Source of the DNA: Bordetella pseudohinzii
GTDB lineage: Bacteria; Pseudomonadota; Gammaproteobacteria; Burkholderiales; Burkholderiaceae_B
Assembly (NCBI RefSeq): GCF_000657795.2
Contig: NZ_JHEP02000011.1
Location: 1 to 64,000, forward strand
Length of the DNA stretch: 64,000 nucleotides
Direction: 5' to 3'
The translations under genes and the position numbers were made by a program. Under the pieces are notes generated by a model that ran no database searches, was not told where the DNA came from, and saw only the letters and a list, made by a program, of their open reading frames with translations. Positions 15,933-32,019 of the stretch are shown piece by piece (within the stretch, counting starts at the first letter, position 1; each line of letters starts with the position of its first letter).

Positions 15933-15978
15933 GGAGTCGAGATGTCTCGCCTCTATGTCTACAGCGCCTGAGTCCAGG

Positions 15979-16086: not shown

Positions 16087-16088
16087 CC

Positions 16089-16202
16089 ATGTCGTGGAGA
16101 AAAAACGTGATCTCAAGCATCAACCCGCCAAGTCCGGTCGCCGGCGGTCTGGACACCGAAAAACGCTACCGCATCCTTTGTGTGGACGTGGGGCCTGCAT
16201 GA
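16089..16202 (+). CDS. small hypothetical tail-operon ORF
   Basis: A 37-residue ORF beginning MSWRKNVISSINPPSP. Its stop overlaps the ATG of the next gene as ATGA, which suggests coupled translation. Could be a short structural or assembly protein; it is too short to classify. Confidence 0.4.
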   Translation: MSWRKNVISSINPPSPVAGGLDTEKRYRILCVDVGPA

Positions 16203-16729: not shown

Positions 16730-16739
16730 GGGAAATGAT

Positions 16740-18248: not shown

Positions 18249-18267
18249 CCGGGAAGCAAACATTTTT

Positions 18268-18293
18268 GACGGCTTGCGAGCCGTCTTTTTTTT
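18268..18293 (+). terminator. intrinsic terminator between sheath and tube genes
   Basis: GACGGCT TGCG AGCCGTC followed by eight T residues, 20 bp after the sheath stop. Placed inside the tail operon, it would set a ratio between sheath and downstream products, or require antitermination for the rest of the tail genes. Confidence 0.85.
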
Positions 18294-18304
18294 GAGGATC
18301 AGAC

Positions 18305-18754: not shown

Positions 18755-18763
18755 GGGCCCGCC

Positions 18764-19219
18764 ATGGCTGACCTGCTCAAGCCTCGCGTCGTCATGGTGA
18801 AAAACCGTGATGGCGTCGAGAAGGCATTCACCATTTCCCGCCTGCCGGCCACGGTGGCGCGGGAGGTGATCGCCAAGTATCCGCTGTCCAATATTCCCAA
18901 ACTGGGCGACTACCAGACCTCGGAAGAGGTCATGAAAAAGCTCATGAGCTATGTGGCCGTGGATCTGGAGGGCCGGGAGCAACGCCTGACCACCCAGGCG
19001 CTCATCGATAACCATGTCGACGACGGTATCCAGCTGATGAGGCTGGAGGTCGAGATGATCGAGGAGAACACCGGTTTTTTCGGACTCGGCGGGCAGCGCG
19101 GTTTCCTGGACTGCCTGTTGGAAAAGTTTCTCCTATCGATTACGCCAATGCTGACCCCTTTATTGGATCAATTGTCAGCTCAGGACTCGCCCGACTCGTC
19201 GAGCTCAAGACCGAAATAG
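18764..19219 (+). CDS. tail assembly chaperone (zero-frame product)
   Basis: A 151-residue protein between tube and tape measure genes, the universal position of the lambda G/T-type chaperones. It is mostly helical (TVAREVIAKYPLSN, SEEVMKKLMSYVAVDLEG). The reading frame overlaps a second open frame (-1) that runs to 19308 without a stop and codes for a well-formed acidic helix, so a frameshifted longer product is expected. The proteins coat the tape measure during tail assembly. Confidence 0.75.
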   Translation: MADLLKPRVVMVKNRDGVEKAFTISRLPATVAREVIAKYPLSNIPKLGDYQTSEEVMKKLMSYVAVDLEGREQRLTTQALIDNHVDDGIQLMRLEVEMIEENTGFFGLGGQRGFLDCLLEKFLLSITPMLTPLLDQLSAQDSPDSSSSRPK

Positions 19220-19308
19220 ACCTGGAGGAGGCGATGGACCTCTGGGAGATCGCCACGACCAACAAGGTCAATGAAATCCGCGCGATGGAAGCGGAAAAAA
19301 GGAAGTGA
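19075..19308 (+). other. -1 frameshift extension of the tail chaperone
   Basis: A canonical slippery heptamer T TTT TTC lies at 19075-19081 in the right phase (GGT TTT TTC). The -1 frame is open from there to a TGA at 19306 and encodes DPFIGSIVSSGLARLVELKT, then EIDLEEAMDLWEIATTNKV, typical of chaperone extensions. A weaker slippery site G GAA AAG is at 19120-19126. The fused product would be 181 residues. Confidence 0.68.
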
Positions 19309-19309
19309 G

Positions 19310-20926
19310 ATGGCCTTGCTGGACGCGCTGACCTACATCATCGATGCGGACAACTCCAAGCTGAATAGGGAGATCGACAAATCGAAGAAGAAAATCGACG
19401 AACTCAGTGAATCGCTGCGGACGGCCGAGGGCCGGGCGGCGACGATGGGAGAGAAGGTCAAAGGGGCCCTCTCCCGGATCCGCTCGTCGATGGTGGACAT
19501 TCTGGCCGACTCTCAGGCGCTGCAAAGGTTCAACGACCATGTCCGTGCGGTCGAGCAGATCCGGAGTACCAGCGAGACGCTGGGGGTGGCCGTTGGCGAC
19601 GTGGACGCCTTCGGCAAGGCTGTCGAGAGGATGGGAGGCGATGCGCAGGGCGCGCAAGAATCCTTGACCAACATGGCTCAGTCGATAGGTCAGGCGCTTG
19701 AGGACGTCGACTCCGGCCAGGCCCAGACGTTCAGGGCACTTGGCATCAGCCTGAAGGATGTCGACGGCGACGCAAAAAACGCGGCGCAGGGCCTGATCGA
19801 ACTTGCCGGCGCCGTCGAGGGAATGGGGCGCGGGCAAGCGGTTTTTCGGATCAATCAACTCGGCATCACGGACAGCCCTACGGTCGAACTGCTTCTCAAG
19901 GGCCGCCAGGAAGTCGAGCGCATGCTGCGCGTCCAGAAAGAACAGGGTGTCATTAGCAGCGGGGCCGCCGAACGGGTGCGGGCCTACTCGGAGACGCTGG
20001 CCAAGCTGCGGCAGAGCGTCGGCGTGGCTACCGGGGGGATCGTCGATTTGATGCTTCCGGCCGTCACATGGTTCATCGAAAAGCTTGACTCGGTGGTCAA
20101 GTGGGTGAATAGCCATGAGACGCTCGTCGCGGGGTTCTTCATCGGCCTGTCGACCATTCTGACCGTGATGTTCCTGCCGGCCATGATTTCGACAACCGCG
20201 GCGATGTGGGCCTTGGTCGCCCCTTTTCTCGCGGTAGCGGCCCCGATCGCCGCCGTGGCGGCGCTCTTTGCGGCGCTGTATGACGATGTGATGAACTTCC
20301 AGGAAGGGAATGATTCATTCATTGGGCAGCTCTCCGAGAGGTATCCGATCGTCGGCCAGGCGGTCTCGCTGATGGCCGGGGAGGTCAAGGCGGCATTCCA
20401 GCGGAGTGTCGACGCCATCGAGGGAGCTTGGGAGAAGATCAAGGGATTCCCGGAGAAGGCGATCGGCGCGTTCTCCGCGATGGGCGCGGCCATCAGCGAT
20501 ATCTTCGACGCCATCGTGAATGTTGTTAAGAGCGCATGGACCTATGTGGGCAGCATTTTCGACAGTGTGTCTTCGGCCATCAAGAAGATTGGCAAGTGGA
20601 TGGGATTTGGCGGTGGCGATGATATCCAGGTAACGCAGGAAGCGATGTCGCAGGGCCTATCGGATGCCGAGGCAAGGGCCGCCGACAACATGAGGGCGGC
20701 GCAAGCACAGCTAGGCCAGGCGGGCGCGAACCCTATGAACCCGGTGACATCGAATGCGATTTCGAACACCAGCAACGCGCGCACCGAGAACAATATCCAG
20801 GTGGGCCCGGTCACGGTTCAAACGCAGGCGACCGACGCGCAGGGCATCAGTCGAGAGATGGGCAGCGAGTTGAAAGACCAGCTTAAGAACGTTCAGGCGG
20901 ATTCAGCCACGGGTATGGAGCGGTAA
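19310..20926 (+). CDS. tail tape measure protein (short)
   Basis: A 538-residue protein with an N-terminal coiled coil (NSKLNREIDKSKKKIDELSE), a long helical middle and a hydrophobic segment at about residues 280-340 (AGFFIGLSTILTVMFLPAMI and neighbours), then an amphipathic C-terminus. It sets tail length and occupies the tube. With about 0.15 nm per residue, the known rule of thumb, it predicts a tail near 80 nm. GTGAG precedes the ATG at 19310; a frame opening 13 codons upstream overlaps the chaperone extension. Confidence 0.88.
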   Translation: MALLDALTYIIDADNSKLNREIDKSKKKIDELSESLRTAEGRAATMGEKVKGALSRIRSSMVDILADSQALQRFNDHVRAVEQIRSTSETLGVAVGDVDAFGKAVERMGGDAQGAQESLTNMAQSIGQALEDVDSGQAQTFRALGISLKDVDGDAKNAAQGLIELAGAVEGMGRGQAVFRINQLGITDSPTVELLLKGRQEVERMLRVQKEQGVISSGAAERVRAYSETLAKLRQSVGVATGGIVDLMLPAVTWFIEKLDSVVKWVNSHETLVAGFFIGLSTILTVMFLPAMISTTAAMWALVAPFLAVAAPIAAVAALFAALYDDVMNFQEGNDSFIGQLSERYPIVGQAVSLMAGEVKAAFQRSVDAIEGAWEKIKGFPEKAIGAFSAMGAAISDIFDAIVNVVKSAWTYVGSIFDSVSSAIKKIGKWMGFGGGDDIQVTQEAMSQGLSDAEARAADNMRAAQAQLGQAGANPMNPVTSNAISNTSNARTENNIQVGPVTVQTQATDAQGISREMGSELKDQLKNVQADSATGMER

Positions 20927-21486
20927 TGCAGCTATTAGACGCCCTTTCAACGTCCACGCAGCAGCAGGTTTCGATTCTGGACTCCGAGACGTTTCAGATC
21001 ATCTTCGCGTCCGCGGAGCCCATGCGGATCAACGTCAAGGAAAAAAAGCGGGCCACGAAGTTTGCCGTGGAGGACGGAACCGACCGCTCCGATCATGTCG
21101 TCCGCGAGCTGACGAATATCGAGATCGAATTTCTGTTGGTCGACGATACGCGGAATCAGTTTGAATCTTTACGCCAGGCATTTGAGCAGAACAAGCTCGT
21201 CACGGTTCAGACCAAGGTTCGATCCTACGAGAACATGCTCATCGTGGATGTTCCGCATAATGAAACGCCCGAGCTGGGGACCGCGATAAGCATCCCCATC
21301 CAATTGCAGGAATGGGTGGAGGTGAAATCCGCTTTCGGCGAGCTGCCGCCTGAAAAAGTGGCGAACAAGAGCCAATCCAGCACCGTAAAACGGGGGCAGC
21401 AGACCACCAGAGATGTCGACCCCGAAACGAAGAAAAAGGCGGGCGTCATGGATGATTGGGGTAAAACGGCGAGAGGTCAAAAATGA
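20926..21486 (+). CDS. baseplate or distal-tail protein
   Basis: A 186-residue protein starting MQLLDALSTSTQQQVSIL, its ATG overlapping the tape measure stop. Beta-rich core (IEIEFLLVDDTRNQFESLRQ, ISIPIQLQEWVEV) followed by a charged, disordered tail. Position after the tape measure suggests a tube-to-baseplate connector or LysM-like gp53 homologue. No catalytic motif seen. Confidence 0.6.
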   Translation: MQLLDALSTSTQQQVSILDSETFQIIFASAEPMRINVKEKKRATKFAVEDGTDRSDHVVRELTNIEIEFLLVDDTRNQFESLRQAFEQNKLVTVQTKVRSYENMLIVDVPHNETPELGTAISIPIQLQEWVEVKSAFGELPPEKVANKSQSSTVKRGQQTTRDVDPETKKKAGVMDDWGKTARGQK

Positions 21487-21791
21487 GGCTGTTAGATCTG
21501 CTGGCGGTGCCGAATCAGACGTTTTCGGCCACGATCAACAGCGTTTTGTGGGAGCTGACCATCAAGGTCGCGCGTGGCACGATGCTGGCTGACGTCCGTC
21601 GTGATGGCGTGGACCTGGTTTTGGGGCAGCGGATCGTCGCCGAGTTTCCCATCCTGCCGTACCGATACCTTGGCCACCAGGGCAACTTTGCCATCCTGAC
21701 TCGGGACGGCGAATTGCCATGGTGGGAGGAGTTTGGGCGCTCGCAGTCGCTGATTTACCTGGATCCTTCGGAGGTCGGCCTCGATGATTGA
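21483..21791 (+). CDS. baseplate plug protein
   Basis: A 102-residue beta-strand-rich protein (NSVLWELTIKVARGTMLADV, GQRIVAEFPILPYRYL) located between the tail-tip protein and hub genes. Small proteins of this size and pattern, often called phage baseplate plug, occur in this spot in contractile tails. ATG overlaps the previous stop. Confidence 0.6.
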   Translation: MRLLDLLAVPNQTFSATINSVLWELTIKVARGTMLADVRRDGVDLVLGQRIVAEFPILPYRYLGHQGNFAILTRDGELPWWEEFGRSQSLIYLDPSEVGLDD

Positions 21792-22608
21792 CCTACGCGC
21801 CATTCGGATCGGGATAGAGGTCTCCGGTCGGATGAACTACTACAGCGCGGCGGATGGGATGCGGATCCGGGCCAGCGGCACGAAGTACGCCAACGCCACG
21901 CAAAATGAATGCACGGTCACGATCTCCAATCTGAGGCGCGAGACCCGGGATTTCCTCCTGACCGAGACCAGCCCTTTCAATAAGAACCGTACGCCCAAGC
22001 GGCTGGTCGTCGAAGTGGGGCGGGTATCGACCGGCCTGTTCAAGGTCTACACGGGGGACATCATCAGTGCCGAGCCGAGCAGTCCGCCGGATGTCGACAT
22101 CGTCCTGAAGTCCAAGACGGGCAACTCGGCGAATGGGAAGGTGGTCTCCAAGAGCGCTCAGGCCACATCGAAGCTATCGGCCATCGCCGCGGCGGTGGCG
22201 ACGGACATTGGCGCCACGCTCGACTTTCAGGCGCAGGACAAACTGATTGCGAACTACACCTATACCGGCGGTGCGCTGGGCCAGGTCAACCGGCTGGCGG
22301 AAGCGGGCGGGGTCCGGGCATTCGTGGATGACATGAGACTGATTGTGCAGGACTTCGACAAGGCCGTGAAAGGCCGCGTCAAGATCCTGAATATGAATAG
22401 CGGCATGGTGGGGATTCCCAAGGCCACAGAGAAGGGCGTGGAGGTCACCTACCTGATCGACGGCGAGTCGGTCCTGGGTGGAACGCTACGCCTGGAGAGC
22501 AAGTTCAACCGGTCGCTCAACGGCGACTACAAGATCGACCAGCTGAAGTTCAACGTGGCCAGCCACGAAGATCCTTTTTTCTATGAAGCGACATGCAGCC
22601 GACTGTAG
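21784..22608 (+). CDS. baseplate hub protein (gp27/D-like)
   Basis: A 274-residue protein whose N-terminal beta barrel (ECTVTISNLRRETRDFLL, FKVYTGDIISAEPSSPPDVD) and following LSAIAAAVATDIGATLDF helix match hub proteins that connect tube and spike. A C-terminal strand pair around KGVEVTYLIDGESVLGG closes the hub fold. It overlaps both neighbours, as hub and spike genes usually do. Confidence 0.72.
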   Translation: MIDLRAIRIGIEVSGRMNYYSAADGMRIRASGTKYANATQNECTVTISNLRRETRDFLLTETSPFNKNRTPKRLVVEVGRVSTGLFKVYTGDIISAEPSSPPDVDIVLKSKTGNSANGKVVSKSAQATSKLSAIAAAVATDIGATLDFQAQDKLIANYTYTGGALGQVNRLAEAGGVRAFVDDMRLIVQDFDKAVKGRVKILNMNSGMVGIPKATEKGVEVTYLIDGESVLGGTLRLESKFNRSLNGDYKIDQLKFNVASHEDPFFYEATCSRL

Positions 22609-23279
22609 CCCCCGATATTGACGGCGCGGACGATGGAAGCCTGTCAGCCGTCCTGAAGTCCTGGATACGTGCCTTCGTCCGCGAGAACCTTGACGATATG
22701 CTGCCGGCCCAGGTGGTCTCCTATGACGACGCCTCCAACCGCGCCGTGATCAAGCCGCTCATCATGATCGGCACGACGGATGGGAAGAAGATTTCGCGCG
22801 GCAGCATCCCGAACATCCCGGTGTTCCGCTTCGGCGGCGGGGGCTTCTTCATGCGGTTTCCCATCAAACCCGGGGACTTCGGATGGTTGAAGGCGAACGA
22901 CCGCGACGTTTCACTGATGTTCCAGCGCGGCGGCGGGGAAGACTGGCCGAATACGGAACGGCTGCATTCATTCTCCGACGCGATGTTCTTCCCCGACACG
23001 ATCAAGGATTGGGCGATCGATGGCGAAAACGCGGACGCGCTGGTACTGCAGTCCATGGATGGCGCGACCAGCCTGGCGTTGCATGACGGGAGAATCGTCC
23101 TGAAAGGCGCTGAGTTCGTGGTGGAGACGGAAGCCATGACGGTCAAATGCCCCACGCATTTCGAGCAACCCATCCGCGCCGACCACGGCATGGATCACGA
23201 TGGTGTCCGAATCGACAAGAGCCACGGACACACGAATGTACAGAACGGACCGGCGACTTCCGGCGGGGTGGCAGGATGA
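22593..23279 (+). CDS. baseplate spike protein (gp138/V-like) with HxH apex motif
   Basis: A 228-residue membrane-piercing spike. An OB-like domain (AQVVSYDDASNRAVIKPL, FPIKPGDFGWLKANDRD) is followed by a beta helix and the apex sequence DKSHGHTNVQNGPATSGG, in which the two His of HGH would bind an iron ion at the needle tip, as in P2 gpV and phi92 gp138. Presence of an intact apex argues that the tail is still a functional injection device. Confidence 0.82.
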   Translation: MQPTVAPDIDGADDGSLSAVLKSWIRAFVRENLDDMLPAQVVSYDDASNRAVIKPLIMIGTTDGKKISRGSIPNIPVFRFGGGGFFMRFPIKPGDFGWLKANDRDVSLMFQRGGGEDWPNTERLHSFSDAMFFPDTIKDWAIDGENADALVLQSMDGATSLALHDGRIVLKGAEFVVETEAMTVKCPTHFEQPIRADHGMDHDGVRIDKSHGHTNVQNGPATSGGVAG

Positions 23280-23620
23280 TCACGTTTCAGACTGACGAGA
23301 ACAACGACTTCGTGACGCTTCCCAACGGGAACCTCGCCATGGCGATGGGCCGCGATGCGGTCGCCCAGGAGGCCAGGCACTTCGCGGCCACGGTTCGCAC
23401 GGAGATGATCCACGCCTACGACGAGGGCATTCCGTTCCTGCGCGAGACCTTTAGCAAGCAGCCGAACCTGGCGCAGTTTGAGGCGTCCTTGCGGCGTCGC
23501 TTGCTGGACACGCCCGATGTGACGGGGATACTGAGCTTGGCGACCCGGATCGAGGGCGAGACGCTGGACTACACGGTGACGCTACAAACCACATACGGCA
23601 CGGTAACGATATATGGCTGA
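23276..23620 (+). CDS. baseplate wedge protein, gp25/W-like
   Basis: A 114-residue protein. The features LPNGNLAMAMGRDAVAQEA, RTEMIHAYDEGIPF and LRRRLLDTPDVTGIL with a final beta strand are typical of gp25-like wedge components, which start sheath polymerisation. ATG overlaps the spike stop. Confidence 0.72.
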   Translation: MITFQTDENNDFVTLPNGNLAMAMGRDAVAQEARHFAATVRTEMIHAYDEGIPFLRETFSKQPNLAQFEASLRRRLLDTPDVTGILSLATRIEGETLDYTVTLQTTYGTVTIYG

Positions 23621-24803
23621 TTACAGTTTCATCGCGAATCGCGGCGTCATCGTCGCGGACACGGCCGCCACGCGCGCGCAGGTGGAAGCCGAATTCCGGG
23701 CAGTGTTCGGCGCGGATATGCCGACAGATCCGGCCACCCCCCAGGGCATGCTGATCACCCGCATCACAGAGGAGCGGGATGCGATCGCCCGTAACAACGC
23801 CGAGCTTGCCAACCAGATCAATCCCAATTTGGCGGGCGGTGTCTTCCTGGATTCCCTGGTGGCCCTGACCGGCGGCCGGCGCCGCAGTAGCGTCCGGTCC
23901 CTGATTGTTGACGCTGTTCTCGGCGGCGTGCCCGGAACGAATGTTCCAGCCGGCTCGATCGCGGAGACAGCGCTAGGCGAACAGTTCGCGCTGGTGAACA
24001 CGGTGGTGCTTGACTCCGCGGGAACCGCCTCAGGCAACCTGCGCGCCCTGCAGGAGGGCGAGATTGTCGTTCCTCCGGGCGGGCTGAACACCGTTGCGTC
24101 GAGCGTGCTCGGATGGGAGACCATCACGAATCTTTCCGCCGCGATCCCAGGCCAGCGGGAAGAAAATGACGTCTTGCTGCGGCGTCGGCGCGCGCTGACC
24201 TTGGCGCTACAGACGACCTCGATCAACGAGGCCATCGTCTCGCGGCTTTATGACATCGAGGCCGTTCGGTCCTGCTACTACTTGGAAAACTACGCGGACG
24301 TCGATCAGTCGGTCGAAGGGATTCCGATGCGCAAGCACAGCATCTGGGCGTGCGTGGAGGGCGGAACCGATATGGAGGTCGCGCAGGCGATCTTTGAAAC
24401 TAAGACTGTCGGCGGGGGCTACAACGGTGCCGTTGTGGTCCAAGTACCGGATCCTGTGAATGCCCGGCTGTACGAGGTCAAGTTTGACCGGCCGCAAGAG
24501 GTGACGCTGTTGATCCGGGTCACGGTTCGCGCCAGCACGCTTGACGTGCAGCAGCTCATCCCGGACCTGGTGATGAACTACGTCAACGGCGAGATCGAGG
24601 GCGATGTCAGTTTCGTGGTCGGAAGCGACGTTTCGCCGTTTGAGATCGCCAGCGCGATCAACCAACAGGAACCATCGATATTCGTCAAGAAGGTTGAAGT
24701 GTCGGTGGTCGGATCAGGGACCTGGTCGGCAGACACCATGGAGATCGCTGCCAACGAGATCGCACGCACACAGCGCAGTTCGATTCAGGTGGTGATCGCA
24801 TGA
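23613..24803 (+). CDS. baseplate assembly protein J-like
   Basis: A 396-residue wedge protein. The J-like signature is clear: ATPQGMLITRITEERDAIAR, LVALTGGRRRSSVRS, VPAGSIAETALGEQFALV, then GLNTVASSVLGWETI and the REENDVLLRRRRALTLA motif. It forms the wedge triangle with the W- and I-like proteins. It overlaps both neighbouring genes. Confidence 0.88.
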   Translation: MADYSFIANRGVIVADTAATRAQVEAEFRAVFGADMPTDPATPQGMLITRITEERDAIARNNAELANQINPNLAGGVFLDSLVALTGGRRRSSVRSLIVDAVLGGVPGTNVPAGSIAETALGEQFALVNTVVLDSAGTASGNLRALQEGEIVVPPGGLNTVASSVLGWETITNLSAAIPGQREENDVLLRRRRALTLALQTTSINEAIVSRLYDIEAVRSCYYLENYADVDQSVEGIPMRKHSIWACVEGGTDMEVAQAIFETKTVGGGYNGAVVVQVPDPVNARLYEVKFDRPQEVTLLIRVTVRASTLDVQQLIPDLVMNYVNGEIEGDVSFVVGSDVSPFEIASAINQQEPSIFVKKVEVSVVGSGTWSADTMEIAANEIARTQRSSIQVVIA

Positions 24804-25447
24804 ACGGGACCCAATTATTCGACTTCTCGGTCGACCTGATGCGGTCCATCCTCTGGCAGTACGAGGGTGCGCCGCGCGCCATCGCGCTGGCTCGGGATGA
24901 TCAAGCTTGGATTGACGGCCATCACTCGGAGTTTTGGCGCAATTGGCATCGGGACGTCTTTGACCTGGATACCGCCAACGAGTTTGGCCTTTCGGTCTGG
25001 GCGAGGATTCTCGGGGTGTCGCTGGAGATCGGCGCATCGCGGCGCGTGGAAGGCGTGTTCGGGTTCGGCGTTACCAACGCCAACTTTGAGAACGGCAACT
25101 TCGGGCGGGCCAGCGATGGCCAGGTGAGCCTGGATATCGAGTCCGCGCGCAAGCTGCTGAAGCTGCGCTGGTTCCAGCTGACCGTGCGGCCGACGGCGCC
25201 GAACATCAACCTCGCGCTGGAGGCTGTGTTTGGAGCGGGAAAGGTCTTTGTCTTCGATCACTACGATATGACGGCCACCTTCCTGTTCTCCAGTACTCCC
25301 GACTACAGGCTCAGACGCCTGCTTGAACAGACCGATATTTTGCCGCGGCCGTCTACGGTCGGGATCAAGTGGGCGGTGCAGGTGCGCCCCGCTTGGGGCT
25401 TCGGCCCGAATCACCTCAATTTCAGTAACGGAAACTTTGGAGCGTAA
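24800..25447 (+). CDS. DUF2612-like tail protein (gpI position)
   Basis: A 215-residue protein linking baseplate and fibres. It starts with a helical segment (LFDFSVDLMRSILWQYE) and has the DUF2612 pattern FDLDTANEFGLSVWARILGV and a tail-like C-terminus FGPNHLNFSNGNFGA that resembles its own inner motif NFENGNFGRAS. The stop is directly followed by the fibre gene ATG. Confidence 0.75.
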   Translation: MNGTQLFDFSVDLMRSILWQYEGAPRAIALARDDQAWIDGHHSEFWRNWHRDVFDLDTANEFGLSVWARILGVSLEIGASRRVEGVFGFGVTNANFENGNFGRASDGQVSLDIESARKLLKLRWFQLTVRPTAPNINLALEAVFGAGKVFVFDHYDMTATFLFSSTPDYRLRRLLEQTDILPRPSTVGIKWAVQVRPAWGFGPNHLNFSNGNFGA

Positions 25448-26437
25448 ATGGCTACCAGGATCTATAAGACGCCGTTCGCGGCGACGGGCGACAAAGAGGC
25501 GCTGGCCGCTGAGGACCAACCCGACGGCAAGGTGTCGCTGCAGGCCGGCTGGACGCCCGACTACGAGCTGCCCGACGACAACGCGAACTATCGCCCGGTC
25601 GGCCGTGCCGAGATGAACGGAATCATCGGGGAAATCACCGAAGGCCTTGGCGAAATGCAGTTGAATGGCTTTGCCAAATGGCAGACAGTCGACGGTGGTT
25701 GGCCTATGGGGGCATACGTCAATCATGGCGGAGGAATATTCCGGTCCACGGCTAGCAACAACACGAGCACCCCGGCGCCCGGGGATGGAAGTTGGGCTGT
25801 TGCCTTTCCCTTGATTTTTTCCATCACCGCACTGCCTATGCAGGATATCGGCCCCGTCATCGTCGCCGAGTGCGCCGAGGTCTGGACCTGGTCCGAAAGC
25901 CAGTACTTTACCGGCTACCGCTCGCCCCTCTGCGGGCGCCCGCTTGATGGGCACACGTTGACGCCGCTGGTGAGCGAAGTGGACGCGACCGGCGGACTGC
26001 TGTCGAAGATGAGTTACGCCCGGCTGTGGGGCTACGCGCAGGAGCAGGGCCTTGTCAAGACCGAGGCTGAGTGGCTGGCGAACCGGGGAGCTCATTGGTT
26101 CACGGACTACTCGTCGACCCAATTCCGAGTGCCGGATCTGCGCGATATGTTCCGCCGCTTTAGCGGAACTGACGCTGACACTGCAAATGCAAGAGTCCTG
26201 GGTAGTCGCCAGACGGACGCCATGCAGCGCATGACGGGCCGACTTTCATTGGTGACCGGGAGCGGTTACGGCGAGGGAGTCTTCGCCAACGACCCGACGT
26301 TGCTCACGGCGCAGATTCAAGCTGGCTATGTGCCCAATAACATCCCCGCAATCAAATTTGATAATGCGATGCAGGTTCGTACCGCGTCGGAAACTCGCTC
26401 CACCAACACTGCCTTTCACCCCCGGATTCATGCATGA
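25448..26437 (+). CDS. tail fibre with invertible C-terminal cassette (currently cassette A)
   Basis: A 329-residue receptor-binding fibre. Residues 1-244 form the constant part: attachment region, then a collar-type domain with SPLCGRPLDGHTLTPL and FRVPDLRDMFRRFSG. From the shared core at 26179 on, the last ~85 residues are exchangeable. The present end (GSRQTDAMQRMTGRLSLVTG to FHPRIHA) has two alternatives on the opposite strand just downstream. In-frame joining of either would change the receptor-binding tip. Tfa follows. Confidence 0.92.
   Translation: MATRIYKTPFAATGDKEALAAEDQPDGKVSLQAGWTPDYELPDDNANYRPVGRAEMNGIIGEITEGLGEMQLNGFAKWQTVDGGWPMGAYVNHGGGIFRSTASNNTSTPAPGDGSWAVAFPLIFSITALPMQDIGPVIVAECAEVWTWSESQYFTGYRSPLCGRPLDGHTLTPLVSEVDATGGLLSKMSYARLWGYAQEQGLVKTEAEWLANRGAHWFTDYSSTQFRVPDLRDMFRRFSGTDADTANARVLGSRQTDAMQRMTGRLSLVTGSGYGEGVFANDPTLLTAQIQAGYVPNNIPAIKFDNAMQVRTASETRSTNTAFHPRIHA
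26179..26191 (+). repeat. inversion site 1 (13-bp core) in the fibre gene
   Basis: CACTGCAAATGCA within codons for T-A-N-A of the fibre. Further 3' the conservation continues as GGTAG-x-CGCCAGA. Plus orientation; pairs with sites 2 and 3 in minus orientation. Confidence 0.9.
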
Positions 26438-26460
26438 ATTCTCGGGTGGAAGGCAGTGTT
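26405..26460. repeat. inverted repeat at the tail-to-tail junction of cassettes A and B
   Basis: The last ~30 bp of cassette A and cassette B are near-identical and face each other, giving a large dyad centred on the perfect palindrome ATTCATGCATGAAT (26426-26439). The stop codons of both reading frames lie inside it and the two ORFs overlap by 10 bp. Confidence 0.88.
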
Positions 26461-26653
26461 CTTCGGGCGGGTCTCTTTGCCTCCATTGGCTTTGATGACA
26501 CCCGTTGCCTGCAATGCGGCCGAGGAAGACTGATAAACGGTGCGACCATTACCAGACGTGACGCCATAGGCATCACGCTCCACAAGGAGCGTCAACGAAG
26601 CTTCGTTGATGGCCTCATTCTGGCGGCTACCTATCACCCTTGCATTTGCAGTG
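26428..26653 (-). other. silent fibre C-terminal cassette B
   Basis: From core site 2 to a TGA, this minus-strand frame encodes TANARVIGSRQNEAINEASL, then a different body (TVYQSSSAALQATGVIKANG) and the shared end KNTAFHPRIHA. It has no ribosome-binding site and no fibre N-terminus, so it is silent until inverted. Joined at the core to the constant part, the codons read through without a shift. Length is about 74 codons. Confidence 0.9.
26641..26653 (-). repeat. inversion site 2 (13-bp core)
   Basis: Identical 13-bp core on the minus strand at the beginning of cassette B, 9 bp past the stop of cassette C. Recombination with site 1 inverts about 0.45 kb (A plus B). Confidence 0.9.
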
Positions 26654-26662
26654 GCATGGACG

Positions 26663-26927
26663 CTAGGAATGGATGCGGGGGTGATAGGCAGCGTTTGAGC
26701 CCCTAGTTTCGGTCGACGTGCGCGCTACGCGACTGGAGTCAAATTCCAGATTGTGCAATTGCTGGGATGGGGATGTCGACGTTTCATATTGACCGAAGAC
26801 TCCCCAAGGAACGACAGAGAACGTCCCTGAAGAGCTGCCACCGCCATACTGGACCCCGTTCGTCGTGCCGGCGAGGCGCTGCATCGAATCTCTCTGGTGG
26901 CTACCCAATGCGCGTGCATTTGCAGTG
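26663..26927 (-). other. silent fibre C-terminal cassette C
   Basis: The minus-strand frame from core site 3 to a TAG encodes TANARALGSHQRDSMQRLAG, followed by a Gly/Ser-rich body (GGGSSSGTFSVVPWG) and the end SNAAYHPRIHS. It resembles cassette A in its first 20 residues, then diverges. No translation start signal is present. About 87 codons. Confidence 0.9.
26915..26927 (-). repeat. inversion site 3 (13-bp core)
   Basis: The same core in minus orientation at the beginning of cassette C, 28 bp before the Tfa start. Recombination with site 1 inverts about 0.75 kb (A, B and C). Confidence 0.9.
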
Positions 26928-26954
26928 CAAATTTCACTAGCAGGAGAAAGAAGT

Positions 26955-27311
26955 ATGCAGAAGAAAGTTTTTCAGACCGACGATGACGGCCTGTACCTTT
27001 ACGAATCCGTCGCAAACGGGCTGGCGCTGACGCCCGGCACCTTCAACATCCCTTACGGAGCATGCGACGATGCGCCGCCCGCACCTCCGGCCGGAAAATG
27101 GCCGCGGCGCCTGGGCGATGCGTGGGTCATGGTCGAGGACTACCGCACCACGCCTCTCTGGGTGGTAGGGACAGGGGCTCCGTACTCGATTGGCGGCGAG
27201 CTGGATGTTGGTGACGGCAAAGTCTGCTACCCGGGTTGGGGGCCGCTTCCGTCCTGGCTGACGCGGGTCGAACCGGAGCCCACTGTGGCCGATACGGACG
27301 CGGACGCATAG
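26955..27311 (+). CDS. tail fibre assembly/cap protein (Tfa-like)
   Basis: A 118-residue protein that probably caps or folds the fibre tip. It begins MQKKVFQTDDDGLYLYESVA, has a Pro-rich middle (DDAPPAPPAGKWPRRLGD) and a C-terminal domain including PVLWV-like strands (YRTTPLWVVGTGAPYS). ATG at 26955 has AGGAGA upstream; the frame upstream of it is the reverse of cassette C and not coding. Being outside the invertible segment it serves all fibre variants. It converges with the recombinase gene. Confidence 0.72.
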   Translation: MQKKVFQTDDDGLYLYESVANGLALTPGTFNIPYGACDDAPPAPPAGKWPRRLGDAWVMVEDYRTTPLWVVGTGAPYSIGGELDVGDGKVCYPGWGPLPSWLTRVEPEPTVADTDADA

Positions 27312-27313
27312 GC

Positions 27314-28336
27314 CTATGCCGCCATCGGCAAGGCCTCCAGCTCGCTTTCCCGCTCGCGGCGCATTGCTTCAAGCTGCTTTTTGCCCAGTGGGCTGCGGGC
27401 AAGCTTCTGGGCCAGCTCGCGCCCATGGGGGTGGTAGTAGCGCAAGAGCATGCGGGTGTCGACGTTGCCGTTGACTTTCGCCAGTTCGTGGATTTGGAAC
27501 ACCGTCGCAAGCTGCGAGGTGCCTTCGTGCCGCAGATCGTGAAAGCGCAGATCCCGAAAGTATGCCGCGTTGGGCCGGCGCCCATGATGCCGGCAGATGC
27601 CCTCATAACGGAGCCGGGCGCGCCGGCGGGCGCGAATGAACGCGCGGGAGACAGAGCCAGGCTGCATCGTGAAGATGCGGCCCCGCATCGACTTGCCTGT
27701 CACCCAGCGACGCAAACATTCGCGCGCGCGCGGGGTTAATGGCACGTCGCGGGCCCGTCCGTTCTTGGTGTGTGGCAGATGGACCACGCCGTGCATCAAA
27801 TCCAGGTGTTCGCGCCGGATGCCAACCACCTCGGACCGGCGCATGCCGGTTTCCTTGGCTACGGTCAGGATGGTCGGCAGCTCCGCTGACCTGGTCGCGC
27901 GGATGATCCAGTCTAGTTCCTGGCGCGGGCATTCCTCTTCGGACACCCCGCGCAGGGTGATGCGGTCGAACAGACGCCGGTCGCGCGCGTCATCGACCGC
28001 AGGCCGGCGTACCAGCTGGACCGGGTTGGCCAGCTGGTCAAAGCCCCAATCCTTGCGGATCACCGTATAGACATGGGACAGGAAGGCCATGCGGCGCACG
28101 ACTGTGGCCGGCGCACGCTCTTTGATCCATTCATCGCGTAGCTCCAGAAGGTCCGTGCTGCGAATCCGGTCCACCGGCCGGATGGCCAGACGGGTCGCGC
28201 GCCAGATCTTGGCGATGGACTGCTCGGCGGCCTTGCCCTTTTTCGTTACCGACACCTCCGCCAGATAGCGGTTGATCGCATCGGCAAGGGTCGGGGCGGG
28301 CTTTCGGCGGGGCTGACGGCGGGACCAGGGCTTCAT
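27314..28336 (-). CDS. Rci-like shufflon tyrosine recombinase
   Basis: A 340-residue tyrosine recombinase distinct from the prophage integrase. The N-terminal segment TLADAINRYLAEVSVTKKGK and the part NPVQLVRRPAVDDARDRRL resemble Rci of plasmid R64 (KYLKTVSVHKKG, NPVELVRKPKVSSGRDRRL). Catalytic motifs: Arg I in KETGMRRSEVVGIR, Lys region LPHTKNGRARDVPL, FHDLRHEGTSQL (His-x-x-Arg), and Tyr in MLLRYYHPHG. Unusually an insertion with Cys/His (GICRHHGRRPN) precedes the HxxR box. It sits 2 bp from Tfa, tail to tail. A TTG-started frame nine codons longer is possible. It is the obvious candidate for fibre inversion. Confidence 0.9.
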   Translation of the reverse strand: MKPWSRRQPRRKPAPTLADAINRYLAEVSVTKKGKAAEQSIAKIWRATRLAIRPVDRIRSTDLLELRDEWIKERAPATVVRRMAFLSHVYTVIRKDWGFDQLANPVQLVRRPAVDDARDRRLFDRITLRGVSEEECPRQELDWIIRATRSAELPTILTVAKETGMRRSEVVGIRREHLDLMHGVVHLPHTKNGRARDVPLTPRARECLRRWVTGKSMRGRIFTMQPGSVSRAFIRARRRARLRYEGICRHHGRRPNAAYFRDLRFHDLRHEGTSQLATVFQIHELAKVNGNVDTRMLLRYYHPHGRELAQKLARSPLGKKQLEAMRRERESELEALPMAA

Positions 28337-28444
28337 AGTCGAAAAAGCCGTCAGTTTTAGCAAATTATTCCCGACAACAGGAGCAGATGCGCCTTTTTCA
28401 TTTCACGAGAGGAAATGTTGCCGCCTTGGGGCTGGGGAGTGAAG

Positions 28445-28864
28445 ATGTTTCAGTTTACAGAACGAGACCAAGCGCGGCTGGCGGGCGTTCATCCGGACCT
28501 TGCGGCTATCGTCGCGGCGGCCGCCAGGCGGTATGAAGGCAAGTTCATTGTGGTCGAAGGGCTGCGCACGCCCGAGCGCCAGCGCGAGCTGGTGGCCAAG
28601 GGCGCCAGCCAGACACGGGACAGCTACCACCTCAGACAGGCTGATGGCTATGGCCATGCCGTTGACCTGGCGCCCTTGGTCGCCGGGGCCATCCCCTGGG
28701 ACAACTGGCCGGCTTTCGCCGGCCTGGCCGCGGTGGTCAAGGCCTGTGCCGCGGAGTTGGGCGTGCCGGTGGAGTGGGGTGGGGATTGGCGGACCCTGAA
28801 GGATGGCCCGCACTTCCAGATTCCGCGGGCCTGGAAGGGCTTGGCGGCGCGCGCGGGGGAATGA
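28445..28864 (+). CDS. endolysin, M15-type peptidoglycan L-alanyl/D-alanyl endopeptidase
   Basis: A 139-residue zinc peptidase that cuts peptidoglycan cross-links. Motifs: SYHLRQADGYGHAVDLAP gives the SxHxxG-x4-D zinc ligands His and Asp, and GGDWRTLKDGPHFQI supplies the catalytic Asp/Glu region and third zinc ligand. ATG at 28445 is preceded by GGGAG. It opens the lysis cassette, divergent from the recombinase gene. Confidence 0.9.
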   Translation: MFQFTERDQARLAGVHPDLAAIVAAAARRYEGKFIVVEGLRTPERQRELVAKGASQTRDSYHLRQADGYGHAVDLAPLVAGAIPWDNWPAFAGLAAVVKACAAELGVPVEWGGDWRTLKDGPHFQIPRAWKGLAARAGE

Positions 28865-29322
28865 TGCAGGAGAACCTGGGGTTCTTGTTGGCGGTGGTCG
28901 GCACCGATGCGGCGAACGCCGCCGCGGCCGGTGAACCGCTGACTTTCTCCCAGATCGTTGGCTATCTGGTGGCGGCGCTCATCGGCGGCGGTGCGATGTG
29001 GAAGGTCTTGCCTATCCTCATGGCGAGGCTGGCCGTGTCAGCCGCTGGCGCGAAGTCTGAGAAGGACGCGATCGAGCGGCTGGAAGGACAGTTGGCCGTG
29101 GAGCGGCAAGCCTCCGAGGCCGCAAGGGCTTCGGCCAACGCAGCTTTCAAGGAACGCAACGACATTTATCTGGAGCTGGCCAAGGTCCAGGCCCAGCTCG
29201 CCGCTTTGAACGAGCGGTCCGCCTACCAGGCGCAGACGATCGAGCGGCAGAACACCCTCATCGAGGAGCTGACCGCGCAGGTACATGCGCTGCAAGGAGA
29301 GGTTCGTGGGAGTCTTGCATAA
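28861..29322 (+). CDS. holin-like membrane protein with coiled coil
   Basis: A 153-residue protein with one clear membrane segment (IVGYLVAALIGGGAMWKVLP, residues ~31-50), perhaps a weaker one at its N-terminus, and a long soluble coiled coil (IERLEGQLAVERQASEAARA). The start overlaps the endolysin stop (ATGATG). Position next to the endolysin suggests a holin or holin partner, but the long coiled coil is unusual for one. Confidence 0.55.
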   Translation: MMQENLGFLLAVVGTDAANAAAAGEPLTFSQIVGYLVAALIGGGAMWKVLPILMARLAVSAAGAKSEKDAIERLEGQLAVERQASEAARASANAAFKERNDIYLELAKVQAQLAALNERSAYQAQTIERQNTLIEELTAQVHALQGEVRGSLA

Positions 29323-29764
29323 GTGGTGGCGGCACCCGCGGCTGGCGCGCGCGTTTCGCCTGGTCTACGCCGTATCGCTGGTCCTGTGCATCTTCGGCGG
29401 GGGGGTCTCCGTCGGAAGCCTGACCGCCTGGAATAGCGCCAGCCGGTCCCTTGCCCTGCAGGTCGAGACCAATACGCAGCAGCGCGAGGATTACCGGCGG
29501 GCGCTGGCCGCGATGTCGGCCGCCGTGAGCCGGGCCGCCGGCACGGCCGAGATGGCGGCGGGCAAGTTGGACAAGGCCGCGGACGCCGCAGAGGGCGCCA
29601 TCAAGGCAGCGAAGGGCGCCGCCACCAAGGCCGGCACCGCGGCGACGAGGGCGTCCGCGGCCGCGAAGTCCGCCAATACGGCGGTCAAGAAGGTGGAAGA
29701 GGCCCTGGCGCCGCCCGCGCCAGCCGTACCCGCGCGCGTGCCGGAGTGGATGAACACGCCATGA
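29306..29764 (+). CDS. membrane protein of the lysis cassette (holin candidate)
   Basis: A 152-residue protein starting with GTG at 29306, supported by AAGGAGA six bases upstream. One N-terminal transmembrane helix (FRLVYAVSLVLCIFGGGVSV) is followed by an Ala/Lys-rich helical stalk and a Pro-rich end. It could be a holin, an antiholin or a structural spacer; the type cannot be decided. Confidence 0.5.
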   Translation: MGVLHKWWRHPRLARAFRLVYAVSLVLCIFGGGVSVGSLTAWNSASRSLALQVETNTQQREDYRRALAAMSAAVSRAAGTAEMAAGKLDKAADAAEGAIKAAKGAATKAGTAATRASAAAKSANTAVKKVEEALAPPAPAVPARVPEWMNTP

Positions 29765-30273
29765 TCGCCGCTGTCGTCAAAAGCCTGGCCGGTTGGAAAG
29801 GCAGCGCGGCGGCGCTGGCGGCCGCCGCGCTGCTGGTGGCGGGGGTGGTGCTGGAGCGGCAGCGGTACGGCGTCCGGCAGTACGAGGCGGGGGTGCGGCA
29901 TACTCGGCTGGAGGCCGATGCCCGCGCGCGCCAGATCGAGGCGCAATATCGGCGCCAGGAACAGGAATTGGCGGCTGATTACGCGGCGCGCCTGGAGCAA
30001 GCCCATGAGTCAGTGCGTCAATCGAGCGCTGAGCGCGATCGCGCAACTGGTGTTGCTGACGGCCTGCGCGGCGCCATCGCCGCCCAGCGTGCCAGAGCCG
30101 CCCAAGCCGCCGCCCGCGCCGGCCTCTCTGAACAAGCCGCTGCCCGAGCCTGGGATATTTTCAAAGCGTGCGCGGATGAATATGCAGCGCTGGCAAGAGA
30201 CGCTGACGCAGCCATCGATGGAATGAGGGAGGGCGCGGCCTGGGCCCAAGCCGCGGCCAAGATCCGTCCGTGA
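29761..30273 (+). CDS. i-spanin Rz-like protein
   Basis: A 170-residue inner-membrane spanin. N-terminal anchor AALAAAALLVAGVVLERQ, then a long periplasmic coiled coil rich in Ala, Arg and Glu. It pairs with the lipoprotein encoded inside it to fuse the membranes at the last step of lysis. ATG overlaps the previous stop. Confidence 0.82.
   Translation: MIAAVVKSLAGWKGSAAALAAAALLVAGVVLERQRYGVRQYEAGVRHTRLEADARARQIEAQYRRQEQELAADYAARLEQAHESVRQSSAERDRATGVADGLRGAIAAQRARAAQAAARAGLSEQAAARAWDIFKACADEYAALARDADAAIDGMREGAAWAQAAAKIRP
30005..30226 (+). CDS. o-spanin Rz1-like lipoprotein nested in Rz
   Basis: A 73-residue ORF in the +1 frame within the Rz gene. The signal peptide ends in the lipobox LLTAC at about residue 21, followed by a Pro-rich stretch (PSPPSVPEPPKPPPAP), the standard form of Rz1 outer-membrane spanins. 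Confidence 0.88.
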   Translation: MSQCVNRALSAIAQLVLLTACAAPSPPSVPEPPKPPPAPASLNKPLPEPGIFSKRARMNMQRWQETLTQPSME

Positions 30274-30654
30274 TCTGGCGCGCGATAACGAGGTGCCTAT
30301 TGACGGCGCGCAATTGCCGTTTTGCCGGCTCGACATTGCGCGTGAGCAGGCCGGCCGGCGTGCCGGAACCGCCCCACACCAGCGGCGGACCTGACGCCGG
30401 TCTCGACCGGATCGGAGCTATTGGGGCGCTTGCCGCAGGGGATGGGCGACCAGGCCGAGATGCGGCAAGCTTGGCCGCCCCAGTGTACAGCTTGCAAGGC
30501 GACATTCGCTGCTTCCGTGACGGCCTTAGCCTCTGGATATGAGCGTAAGCCTCAACTATTCGGAAATGACCATGGTGACCATCTTCGCTGTATCGGTGGA
30601 TTGCTTGCACGCTGCAATCGTTGCCATGCAGCTTCATCTTCATGTGGAGGGTAA
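30274..30654. other. 381-bp stretch without supported gene
   Basis: Two open frames exist here (30270-30542 with a GTG overlapping the Rz stop; 30421-30654 Cys-rich at its end) but neither has a ribosome-binding site or recognisable protein features. The last part before 30655 becomes AT-richer and ends in GGAGGG, the ribosome-binding site of the next gene. Confidence 0.5.
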
Positions 30655-31656
30655 ATGAATAAGTCTGCAGATAGTCAAATGACGAGTCCCCCATTTCCTG
30701 GGGGCTACGCGGTTACTCTAAAGGGAGTCCTTCCCGGGGGTGTGCATTTCACCAGGCTGTGCATGTACAGCTTCCAGCCCGGCGGCACCATGAGGTCAGA
30801 TTTCTGGTATTGGCAAGGGGATGCATCCGTTTGGAGCCCGGCGAATCCAGGTGACTACGGATCTATTGGCCGTCAAGTAGGTTATGCAAATCAGCCATCC
30901 TATCCTTACAACTTTGACCAGAGCGCATATGTTCAAGGTTCGAAGAAATTTAGCGTCGCGAATTCGATTCCCACGACAATTTTCGGGACTTGGTCAATGC
31001 AGGGGGCCGATTCCGTCTTTATCGATTTCAATGGCAGTACCGAGCTCTGGAGAGCCACGTGGTCAGATGCGACGCTGACAAAGATCGAGCTGCAGCATGC
31101 CAATTACATTTCTGGCTCCGTCTATCTGAAATCTGACGGTACCTACAATGCTGCTGCGCTCAATGCTGGATGGGGCTTTGGCGGGATCAATGTCGGTTTT
31201 TTGACGGCGGTGGACGTCAATGGCATGCACAAGGATTTGCCTTACGGCCAGGTCATACGACATAACTCTTGGGCCGCCCTTGATGAGCCGGTGTCTACGG
31301 ACTCAATGAGCTTGGCCACGGTGTTTCTGGCGACCACGACTCAAGCACTACGCTATGTGGGGTGGGACAACACACCTGGGGCCCGGCATCACGTCTTCTA
31401 CTACTTGGCCCAGCCTTTCGGCAATACTGGAATGACAGCCGGGCGAGTGTGCTATCAGGTGAGCCACGACTATAATAACAACGGATATATCGCCGACGAC
31501 ATTGGGCACACTTACTCTGGGCTGCAAGTGATAGACCAGGTAGGGAATTTTCGCGGGTTTGTGTTTGCTGATTCGTCTGTTAACGGGGCACCAGTGGCCA
31601 CTGGCGACAACCATACGATTTCAGCCTTGTACTACCTGGATACGCAGACTACCTAG
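30655..31656 (+). CDS. hypothetical cargo (moron) protein
   Basis: A 333-residue protein of unknown function at the right end of the prophage, with TGGAGGG before its ATG. Base composition is clearly more AT-rich than the phage and host genes around it, which suggests separate acquisition. No signal peptide or membrane segment is evident. It is rich in Gly, Ser, Tyr and Trp with a beta-strand pattern (GGYAVTLKGVLPGG, FIDFNGSTELWRATWSD), and could be a secreted-type or carbohydrate-binding fold; no catalytic motif is recognised. It is likely a lysogenic conversion or defence gene, inference only. Confidence 0.65.
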   Translation: MNKSADSQMTSPPFPGGYAVTLKGVLPGGVHFTRLCMYSFQPGGTMRSDFWYWQGDASVWSPANPGDYGSIGRQVGYANQPSYPYNFDQSAYVQGSKKFSVANSIPTTIFGTWSMQGADSVFIDFNGSTELWRATWSDATLTKIELQHANYISGSVYLKSDGTYNAAALNAGWGFGGINVGFLTAVDVNGMHKDLPYGQVIRHNSWAALDEPVSTDSMSLATVFLATTTQALRYVGWDNTPGARHHVFYYLAQPFGNTGMTAGRVCYQVSHDYNNNGYIADDIGHTYSGLQVIDQVGNFRGFVFADSSVNGAPVATGDNHTISALYYLDTQTT

Positions 31657-31668
31657 TAGGCAAACGTA

Positions 31669-31703
31669 GGCGAGCCGTGATGGAAACCGATCATTGGCTC
31701 GCC
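31669..31703. terminator. hairpin downstream of the cargo gene
   Basis: GGCGAGCC (31669-31676) pairs perfectly with GGCTCGCC (31696-31703) around a 19-base loop, 13 bp past the cargo stop. No T-run follows, so termination would be Rho-assisted or the hairpin protects the mRNA end. Confidence 0.4.
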
Positions 31704-31874
31704 AGATCATCGAATCGAAATGTCGGCGCTGTCAATGCGTCTTCGCATTACAGTGTAGGGCTTGCGTGCTCATCCATCCCATTCATCATCATTTCGTCAG
31801 CAGACGATGCCGCTGCGCGTGACGGCCTTCCCTTGTAAGGGCCAGTATGGGGCCGCTGAAGGCGCGCGGATCTC

Positions 31875-31978
31875 AGGGAATAATCCAGGGAACAATGGGG
31901 GGAATGGCGGGGAATATGCGCCCGTCTAATCGTTGAAAAACAAGGGTTTTATTCCCCGAAGCCCCCCTCGGTTCCCCA
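31875..31978. repeat. cluster of GGGGAA/TTCCCC motifs beside attR
   Basis: About six GGGAA-type motifs in 100 bp, four on one strand then two inverted, including the dyad CGGGGAATA (31908-31916) / TATTCCCCG (31950-31958). Similar CGGGGAAC and CGGGGTAA lie just inside attL (about 8373-8390). Likely integrase arm-type sites. Confidence 0.45.
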
Positions 31979-31984
31979 TACAAA

Positions 31985-32019
31985 TGGGTTCGAGTCCCAT
32001 CAGCCGCTCCACTGAATTC
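31985..32019. repeat. attR: right attachment repeat
   Basis: Partial duplicate of the tRNA-His 3' end: 21 bp identical to 8299-8319, then 11 of 14 matching through GAATTC. The three differences (relative to attL at 8320, 8322, 8327) fall in the acceptor end, so this copy could not give a normal tRNA-His acceptor stem. Confidence 0.92.

What the first reader, a model, noticed from the sequence alone, without database searches (positions are those of the whole stretch)
26179..26927. Three-ended tail-fibre shufflon: exchangeable C-terminal cassettes A, B and C
Seen in sequence: an identical 13-bp core CACTGCAAATGCA occurs three times, at 26179 (plus), 26641 and 26915 (both minus). After each core an open frame runs for 74-87 codons in the same phase and ends in HPRIHA or HPRIHS. 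Placing B or C behind the constant fibre part by inversion at the core keeps the frame exactly (T-A-N-A-R then V-L-G-S, V-I-G-S or A-L-G-S). B and C have no start codon context of their own. Site layout (+,-,-) gives four inversion isomers presenting A, B or C. Known parallels are R64 pilV shufflons and Mu/P1 fibre inversion, but here the switch is a small single-core system on a tailed element, with a tyrosine rather than serine recombinase.
Basis: partly seen in the sequence, partly recalled or inferred. Interest (0 to 1): 0.92.

Follow-up and report, generated by a model that had tools for sequence, protein, structure and literature searches.

The report
Switchable phage tail-fibre tips, Bordetella prophage
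A prophage in a Bordetella-group bacterium carries three interchangeable tips for its tail fibre, each starting with the same short DNA switch site and sitting beside a recombinase; relatives show the tips really do get swapped, so such phage particles can probably change what they bind to.

Summary
Three exact copies of CACTGCAAATGCA lie at 26179(+), 26641(-), 26915(-) (0.02 expected). Each opens a tip cassette of 74-87 codons in the same phase, so every tip fits the constant fibre part. The neighbouring tyrosine recombinase (27314-28363, -) is not the prophage integrase: a separate arm-domain integrase sits at a tRNA-His with 21-bp att repeats.

The system belongs to a family. Related recombinases, one clade (100/100) apart from plasmid Rci, mostly sit beside the same or a variant core and 1-12 tip cassettes in Achromobacter, Bordetella, Pandoraea, Herbaspirillum and others; 32 of 268 genomes of the bacterial family match.

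Rearrangement is visible in relatives: identical flanks joined to different tips, crossover inside 12 bp; tips displayed in one prophage, silent and inverted in another; contigs that stop at cores. Activity in this strain was not tested.

The principle is published: the Rin shufflon of bifidophages also uses a tyrosine recombinase. New here: separate core and hosts, core-bounded cassettes shared between divergent prophages, and a headless host element. New variant of a known kind.

The parts
8299..32005 (.). Prophage element (about 23.7 kb) bounded by a 21-bp direct repeat: tRNA-His 3' end at 8299 and copy at 31985
   Evidence: repeat; tRNA-His 8250-8325
8351..9580 (-). The prophage's own tyrosine integrase, with arm DNA-binding domain, next to the tRNA
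   Evidence: PF12167, PF00589
25448..26437 (+). Tail-fibre gene: constant part plus the currently displayed tip A
   Evidence: PHROG tail fibre families; no Pfam hit
26179..26191 (+). Core site 1 (CACTGCAAATGCA), codes T-A-N-A at the join of constant part and tip
26192..26437 (+). Tip cassette A (displayed)
26428..26640 (-). Tip cassette B (silent, inverted); its end overlaps that of A
   Evidence: a relative of it lies silent in the genome's second shufflon, 83.7% over 264 nt
26641..26653 (-). Core site 2
26663..26914 (-). Tip cassette C (silent, inverted)
26915..26927 (-). Core site 3
26955..27311 (+). Tail-fibre assembly chaperone-like gene, outside the invertible stretch
   Evidence: PHROG 105 tail fibre assembly, weak, E 8e-8; found beside the recombinase in most relatives compared
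27314..28363 (-). Dedicated tyrosine recombinase (TTG start at 28363; the ATG at 28336 matches the starts of relatives)
   Evidence: (PF00589)
15786..15887 (+). Remnant of the 3' end of the major capsid gene; the rest of the head and packaging block is missing
16010..25447 (+). Contractile-tail module (gateway protein, sheath, tube, tape measure, baseplate) with open frames
   Evidence: same order in G045

Best explanation
This is a tail-fibre shufflon. The fibre gene is built from a constant part and one of three alternative C-terminal tips. A dedicated tyrosine recombinase (27314-28363) recombines oppositely oriented copies of a 12-bp core, CACTGCAAATGC, embedded in the codons for T-A-N-A at the join. 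Inverting the DNA between the displayed core and a silent core puts tip B or C behind the constant part in frame and parks A in reverse. The likely use is to change which surface structure the tail binds. Shown here: the anatomy, the shared phase, the single clade of recombinases linked to cores and cassettes, and swapped arrangements with crossover inside the core in relatives. Inferred: that this recombinase does the cutting, that it is active in this strain, and that the tips set binding specificity. In this genome the element has lost its head genes, so any particle made from it alone would be a headless, tailocin-like tail.
For: Core 3 exact copies against 0.02 expected; same codon phase in A, B, C. 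Linkage: of 72 genome loci examined (78; L117-L122, short or weak matches, dropped), exact core within 5 kb downstream in 24 of 29 with recombinase identity of 54% or more and in 2 of 43 below; two or more relaxed cores in 21 of 29 and 1 of 43; relaxed core within 5 kb upstream in 1 of 29 and 2 of 43. The one of 43, Oligella L073, also has fibre cassettes and falls in the same clade. DNA-level constraint: in 206 cassettes found by protein motif in 64 loci, codon 1 ends in T in 206, Ala is GCA in 193 (21% background) and Asn is AAT in 205 (35% background). Rearrangement: L145 against L147, identical recombinase and 371 identical nt after it, then another cassette, crossover within CACTGCAAATGC; the displayed tip of L168 is a silent inverted tip of L040, and that of L172 a silent one of L171; of eleven pairs with fibre constant parts 94-100% identical, ten have tips at 16-40%. 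Contig ends: 5 of 11 contigs that stop within 5 kb after the recombinase stop within 16 nt of a core start, P 1.2e-6 under a simple model. Separate integrase and att repeats.
Against: No reads of this strain were available; its assembly shows one arrangement only. The host element is headless, so selection on the fibre may be relaxed. The recombinase has Asn (N300) where 6 of 9 aligned members have His and one has Trp, though L036 with five cassettes and L041 share the Asn. Two uninterrupted loci with related recombinases (L059, L072) have no cores within 5 kb, and 17 of 76 loci held no complete cassette, many of them cut by a contig end. One close pair shows the same tip (L051/L052). In L040 the displayed tip and one silent tip are broken, and its copy of the L168 tip is 18 codons shorter. 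No structure could be predicted (server busy).
Confidence: 0.9

Rival explanations
1. A frozen relic: the shufflon worked in the ancestor, but in this headless prophage it no longer inverts and A is simply the last tip left in place.
For: Head and packaging genes are deleted with only a capsid-gene remnant left; the assembly shows a single arrangement; Asn at a usually His/Trp catalytic position.
Against: Recombinase, all three cassettes, the chaperone-like gene and the tail genes scanned have open frames; the three cores are identical; the same Asn occurs in L036 with five intact cassettes.
Confidence: 0.25
2. The recombinase is an ordinary phage or island integrase, and the repeated core is incidental or an attachment-site family.
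For: It belongs to the phage-integrase superfamily and matches PHROG integrase families.
Against: A separate integrase with an arm domain lies at the tRNA-His end with 21-bp att repeats; the cores lie inside fibre reading frames in the same phase and track this recombinase clade.
Confidence: 0.03
3. Tip diversity arises by ordinary homologous recombination or gene conversion between duplicated fibre ends, not by site-specific inversion.
For: Tips share conserved ends (TANAR..GS.Q and ETR..N.A..PRIH), which could serve as homology.
Against: Exact identity at the join in the window is 13-15 nt; codon choice is fixed at the core against background; switches map to the core; the core goes with one recombinase clade.
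Confidence: 0.04
4. B and C are independent small genes or dead duplicates, not fibre tips.
For: Internal GTG and TTG starts exist in both frames.
Against: No ATG start listed; frames run unbroken through the core in the fibre phase; silent tips of one relative are displayed on the fibre of another.
Confidence: 0.02

Closest known systems
Rin shufflon of Bifidobacterium prophages (PMC6109161, passages) and of Eggerthella lenta prophages (PMC8778435, passages)
   Same: Constant receptor-binding-protein part, several exchangeable C-terminal parts, short asymmetric repeated site (11 bp there), adjacent tyrosine recombinase without arm domain, separate integrase elsewhere in the prophage.
   Different: Different core (TTCCCTAACCC there, CACTGCAAATGC here) and Gram-negative hosts; whether the two recombinases or fibres are related was not tested because no Rin sequence was held.
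R64 / IncI1 pilV shufflon with Rci
   Same: Tyrosine recombinase beside several inverted cassettes for the C-terminus of an adhesin, separated by short repeated sites (L227).
   Different: Pilus adhesin on a plasmid; site GTGCCAATCCGGT; Rci is about 33% identical and falls outside the clade found here.
Gin/Cin/Min invertases of Mu, P1, p15B (as described in PMC6109161) and gin of FRphi (PMC13418256, passages)
   Same: Tail-fibre C-termini switched by DNA inversion; FRphi also has three tips.
   Different: Serine recombinases (for FRphi inferred from the gene name); here a PF00589 tyrosine recombinase.
Integron gene cassettes (recalled, no call)
   Same: Short units bounded by recombination sites and shared between different elements.
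   Different: attC structures and IntI were not sought; the cassettes here are not whole genes and work only fused to the fibre.

Membership tests
Tail-fibre/RBP shufflon with tyrosine recombinase (Rin type) | Constant fibre part followed by exchangeable C-terminal cassettes | tested here: met
Tail-fibre/RBP shufflon with tyrosine recombinase (Rin type) | Adjacent dedicated tyrosine recombinase, distinct from the integrase | tested here: met
Tail-fibre/RBP shufflon with tyrosine recombinase (Rin type) | Short repeated asymmetric crossover site at each cassette | tested here: met
Tail-fibre/RBP shufflon with tyrosine recombinase (Rin type) | Observed alternative arrangements with crossover in the site | tested here: met
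   in relatives only; contig ends; not in this strain
Tail-fibre/RBP shufflon with tyrosine recombinase (Rin type) | Recombinase homologous to Rin itself | not testable with these tools
   no Rin sequence was held or fetched
R64/Rci shufflon | sfx-type site GTGCCAATCCGGT (pattern recalled) | tested here: not met
   seven sfx sites in the IncI1 control L227; the repeated core here is CACTGCAAATGC
R64/Rci shufflon | Recombinase groups with Rci | tested here: not met
   Rci lies with other integrases (92/77; a long branch, so its exact place is unsure), the clade here is separate (100/100)
R64/Rci shufflon | PilV pilus adhesin as target | tested here: not met
   target matches phage tail-fibre families
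Gin/Cin/Min inversion systems | Serine recombinase | tested here: not met
   PF00589 tyrosine recombinase
Diversity-generating retroelement | Reverse transcriptase with template and variable repeats | not tested
   no such gene among the window proteins scanned, but not all frames were scanned
Tailocin | Tail and lysis genes without head and packaging genes | tested here: met
   two baseplate-region proteins bear the PHROG label 'head and packaging' (phrog_349, phrog_587) but lie in the tail block
Tailocin | Produces killing particles | not testable with these tools
   needs induction and a killing assay

The most novel reading that the evidence does not exclude
The tips form a shared, integron-like cassette pool: units running from core to core move between shufflons of different prophages by intermolecular recombination at the core, catalysed by these recombinases, and in this genome the pool arms a headless, tailocin-like particle that can switch targets. 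Core-to-core units 89-95% identical between prophages whose recombinases are only about 60% identical (L055/L171, L124/L171, L128/L171), changing cassette numbers between close prophages (L139/L140, L168/L170, L171/L172/L173), and two shufflon prophages in one genome here all fit; the transfer mechanism and the particle are not shown.
Probability: 0.35. Interest if true: 0.78.

Novelty: new variant of a known kind. Interest (0 to 1): 0.6.

Why it matters
It shows that tyrosine-recombinase fibre switching, reported as a first in bifidophages in 2018 (PMC6109161, passages), also exists as a widespread family in Burkholderiales phages, among them phages of Achromobacter, a genus of opportunistic pathogens (recalled). 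It gives a defined 12-bp core, a defined recombinase clade and some 200 tip sequences with which inversion, cassette exchange and receptor specificity can be tested. It would explain why 11 of 29 contigs stop just after the recombinase, and warns that one assembled fibre tip may not be the phage's only one. If the core-bounded exchange is catalysed by the recombinase, it would link shufflons with cassette capture as in integrons.

Tried and rejected
Nucleotide search of the 9-kb fibre region against 50,697 phage records found nothing; protein search there gave 64 records, all under 60% identity and at most about 35% in the 40 listed. PDB search with the single recombinase gave nothing; the profile found three XerC/XerD-like sequences. 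The prophage-integrase reading was rejected. Membership in the Rci family was rejected on the tree (four rows with stops skipped). My first codon count was circular because it selected on the exact 9-mer; I repeated it from the protein motif. A first motif search with loose patterns gave many chance hits and was replaced by the core-anchored listing. NCBIfam was not searched (one search failed and was not repeated). What the 42-48% homologues in Dyella, Rhodanobacter and others do was not worked out; apart from L073 at 49%, no fibre cassettes were found beside those looked at. Identical tips in two places in L050 and in L054 remain unexplained. Loci that are the same locus in two collections (such as L035/L152, L051/L136, L061/L161) show the same arrangement, as copies of one assembly would, and say nothing on activity.

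Full report
What is there. The window holds three exact copies of CACTGCAAATGCA, at 26179 (plus), 26641 and 26915 (minus), against 0.02 expected by chance. A fourth exact copy lies in another prophage of the same genome; these four are all that the assembly holds. The fibre gene 25448-26437 runs through the first copy. From each copy an open frame of 85 (A), 74 (B) or 87 (C) codons runs to HPRIHA, HPRIHA or HPRIHS. The stop lies 1+3n bases from the first core base in all three, so exchange at the core keeps the frame. Between their conserved ends the tips are only 22-32% identical. Inversions between opposed cores give four arrangements, showing A, B, C and C.

The element. A 21-bp direct repeat links the 3' end of tRNA-His (8299) with 31985, marking a 23.7-kb prophage. 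Its own integrase, with an arm-binding domain, lies at 8351-9580. Repressor, primosomal and helicase-loader genes, a contractile-tail module, fibre, chaperone-like gene and endolysin follow. The nearest relative with the same tail, in genome G045, has about 11 kb between loader and tail with terminase, portal, Mu-F-like, DUF2213 and major capsid genes. The window has none of these there; only about 34 codons of the 3' end of the capsid gene remain, at 15786-15887. No terminase, portal or capsid match came up among the element's proteins scanned (not every small frame was scanned; two baseplate-region proteins carry the PHROG label 'head and packaging'). I read the element as headless.

The recombinase. 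The gene at 27314-28363 (minus) is a PF00589 protein with no arm-binding domain among its Pfam hits; an internal ATG (28336) matches the starts of relatives. A profile aligns it with XerC/XerD-like structures across the R, K, HxxR and Y motifs (the catalytic roles are recalled). Where 6 of 9 aligned members have G-H and one G-W, this protein and L036 have G-N, as has L041.

The family. Among 101 genomes (own plus 100 relatives), 33 match at E 1e-20; 10 matches in 7 of them are at least 54% identical, then 49%, then 40% or less. Of the nine besides the window's own, seven had cores and cassettes, and two contigs stop about 700 nt after the recombinase. One of the seven is a second prophage in this very genome, with a Mu-like portal and a contractile tail of another type. 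Scans of named genomes and of viral contigs kept 78 and 80 loci; both lists are capped at 80: Achromobacter, Bordetella, Pandoraea, Herbaspirillum, Paraburkholderia, Castellaniella, Corticimicrobacter and others. In the bacterial family 32 of 268 genomes match at E 1e-90 or better, with eight candidates scored per genome at most. On a 59-row tree (four further rows with stops skipped) the 34 rows of the at-least-54% group plus Oligella L073 form one clade (100/100); Rci lies elsewhere, on a long branch.

Link between recombinase and core. I examined 72 of the 78 genome loci (L117-L122, short or weak, dropped). The exact nine-base core lies within 5 kb downstream in 24 of 29 with identity of 54% or more and in 2 of 43 below; two or more relaxed cores in 21 of 29 and 1 of 43. 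One of the 24, L065, has its exact copy by chance; its cassettes use a variant core. Of the eight without two relaxed cores, five contigs end early, one has an N gap, and two (L059, L072) are uninterrupted and lack cores. Some loci use a variant core: CTGCGAATG in L065, L067, L068; AATGCAAATGC in L073; CTGCTAATG in L151. After dropping nine loci (seven copies, L169 and L065), 226 complete cassettes lie in 59 of 76 loci, up to 12 in one; 17 loci have none; some near-copies from the two collections remain in these counts.

The core is kept as DNA. Cassettes found by protein motif alone, 206 in 64 loci, have a first codon ending in T in 206 (NCT in 202), GCA for Ala in 193, and AAT for Asn in 205, against 21% GCA and 35% AAT elsewhere in the cassettes. 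The first residue may be T, A, S or P. A lone G ten bases upstream is kept in 97% of 33 distinct silent left flanks (77% of 31 recombinase-proximal, all 7 classed as displayed). In 46 of 46 displayed fibres extracted, the constant part ends GT(D/N)xDTAN before the tip.

Rearrangement. L145 and L147 have identical recombinase genes (978 nt), 760 of 760 identical bases upstream and identical sequence for 371 nt after; then L145 continues, for the rest of the 81 nt between that core and its contig end, with what is the second cassette of L147. The mixed marks place the crossover inside CACTGCAAATGC. In L168 the displayed tip is a silent inverted tip of L040 (100% and 96% around a 53-nt gap), flanks 93% identical; L040's own displayed tip is broken. 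A 489-nt core-bounded segment is inverted between L168 and L170; a tip silent in L171 is displayed in L172 at 96%. L139 and L140 are 97% identical on both sides up to the cores; between them only two short matches (93 and 49 nt at 80%) remain. Of eleven pairs with fibre constant parts 94-100% identical, ten have tips 16-40% identical and one (L051/L052) identical tips; just below, L138/L166 have tips at 85%. Eleven of 29 contigs stop within 5 kb after the recombinase, none within 5 kb before it; five of the eleven stop within 16 nt of a core start (chance about 0.02 each, P 1.2e-6), five 75-109 nt after one, and one near none. This is what a mixture of arrangements in the sequenced DNA would give; a plasmid shufflon with mixed arrangements is reported to have fragmented a short-read assembly (PMC6158609, passages).

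Cassette sharing. L055 and L171 have recombinases 60% identical, yet share a 230-nt unit from core to core at 94.8%; L124/L171 share 281 nt at 93.2% and L128/L171 280 nt at 89.3%, again bounded by cores. The set of recombinase, chaperone-like gene, last part of the fibre (96-144 residues in most) and cassettes recurs beside tails with little or no similarity to the window's, though G045 shares the whole tail. Which process moves cassettes between prophages is not shown.

Prior art. The Rin shufflon of bifidophages was reported as the first phage-encoded tyrosine-family invertase (PMC6109161, passages) and also in Eggerthella lenta (PMC8778435, passages). FRphi switches three tips with gin, one of which uses FhuA (PMC13418256, passages). 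A prophage of Pseudomonas fluorescens Pf-5 carries an integrase described as similar to Rci (PMC2647930, passages). A genome-wide survey saw tail-fibre inversions in prophages of four Proteobacteria, without detail in the passages seen (PMC5903667). Searches listed no paper that names this family in Burkholderiales in its title or the abstract start shown; the library lacks most subscription journals, so this is no proof of absence.

Verdict. It is a new variant of a known kind. Not shown: activity in this strain, the enzyme's catalysis, and the receptors of the tips.

Noticed in passing
window 15600-16010: Head and packaging genes are missing from the prophage; only a remnant of the 3' end of the major capsid gene remains, while the tail and lysis genes that were scanned are open.
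   Followed up: yes
window 27314-28363, residue N300; L036, L041: The recombinase has Asn at a catalytic position that is His in 6 and Trp in 1 of 9 aligned members; L036 and L041 share the Asn.
   Followed up: partly
L050 (405+ and 1623- after recombinase), L054 (800+ and 1897-): The displayed tip occurs a second time, 100% identical, in a silent place: true duplication or two isomers stitched by the assembler.
   Followed up: no
L039, L157, L159, L163, L167-L170: A second layout with pairs of inverted cores about 25 bp apart between divergent cassettes, up to 12 tips.
   Followed up: partly
L065, L067, L068, L073, L151: Variant cores (CTGCGAATG, AATGCAAATGC, CTGCTAATG), mostly beside more diverged recombinases, suggest co-evolution of enzyme and site.
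   Followed up: partly
L076-L084 and Paraburkholderia plasmid L228: Recombinases at 45-48% identity in Dyella, Rhodanobacter and others with no fibre cassettes seen nearby; function unknown, some lie near other inverted repeats.
   Followed up: no
G001 (L246-L248): A congeneric genome has a related contractile-tail prophage (sheath 74%) but no match to the recombinase at E 1e-20.
   Followed up: partly
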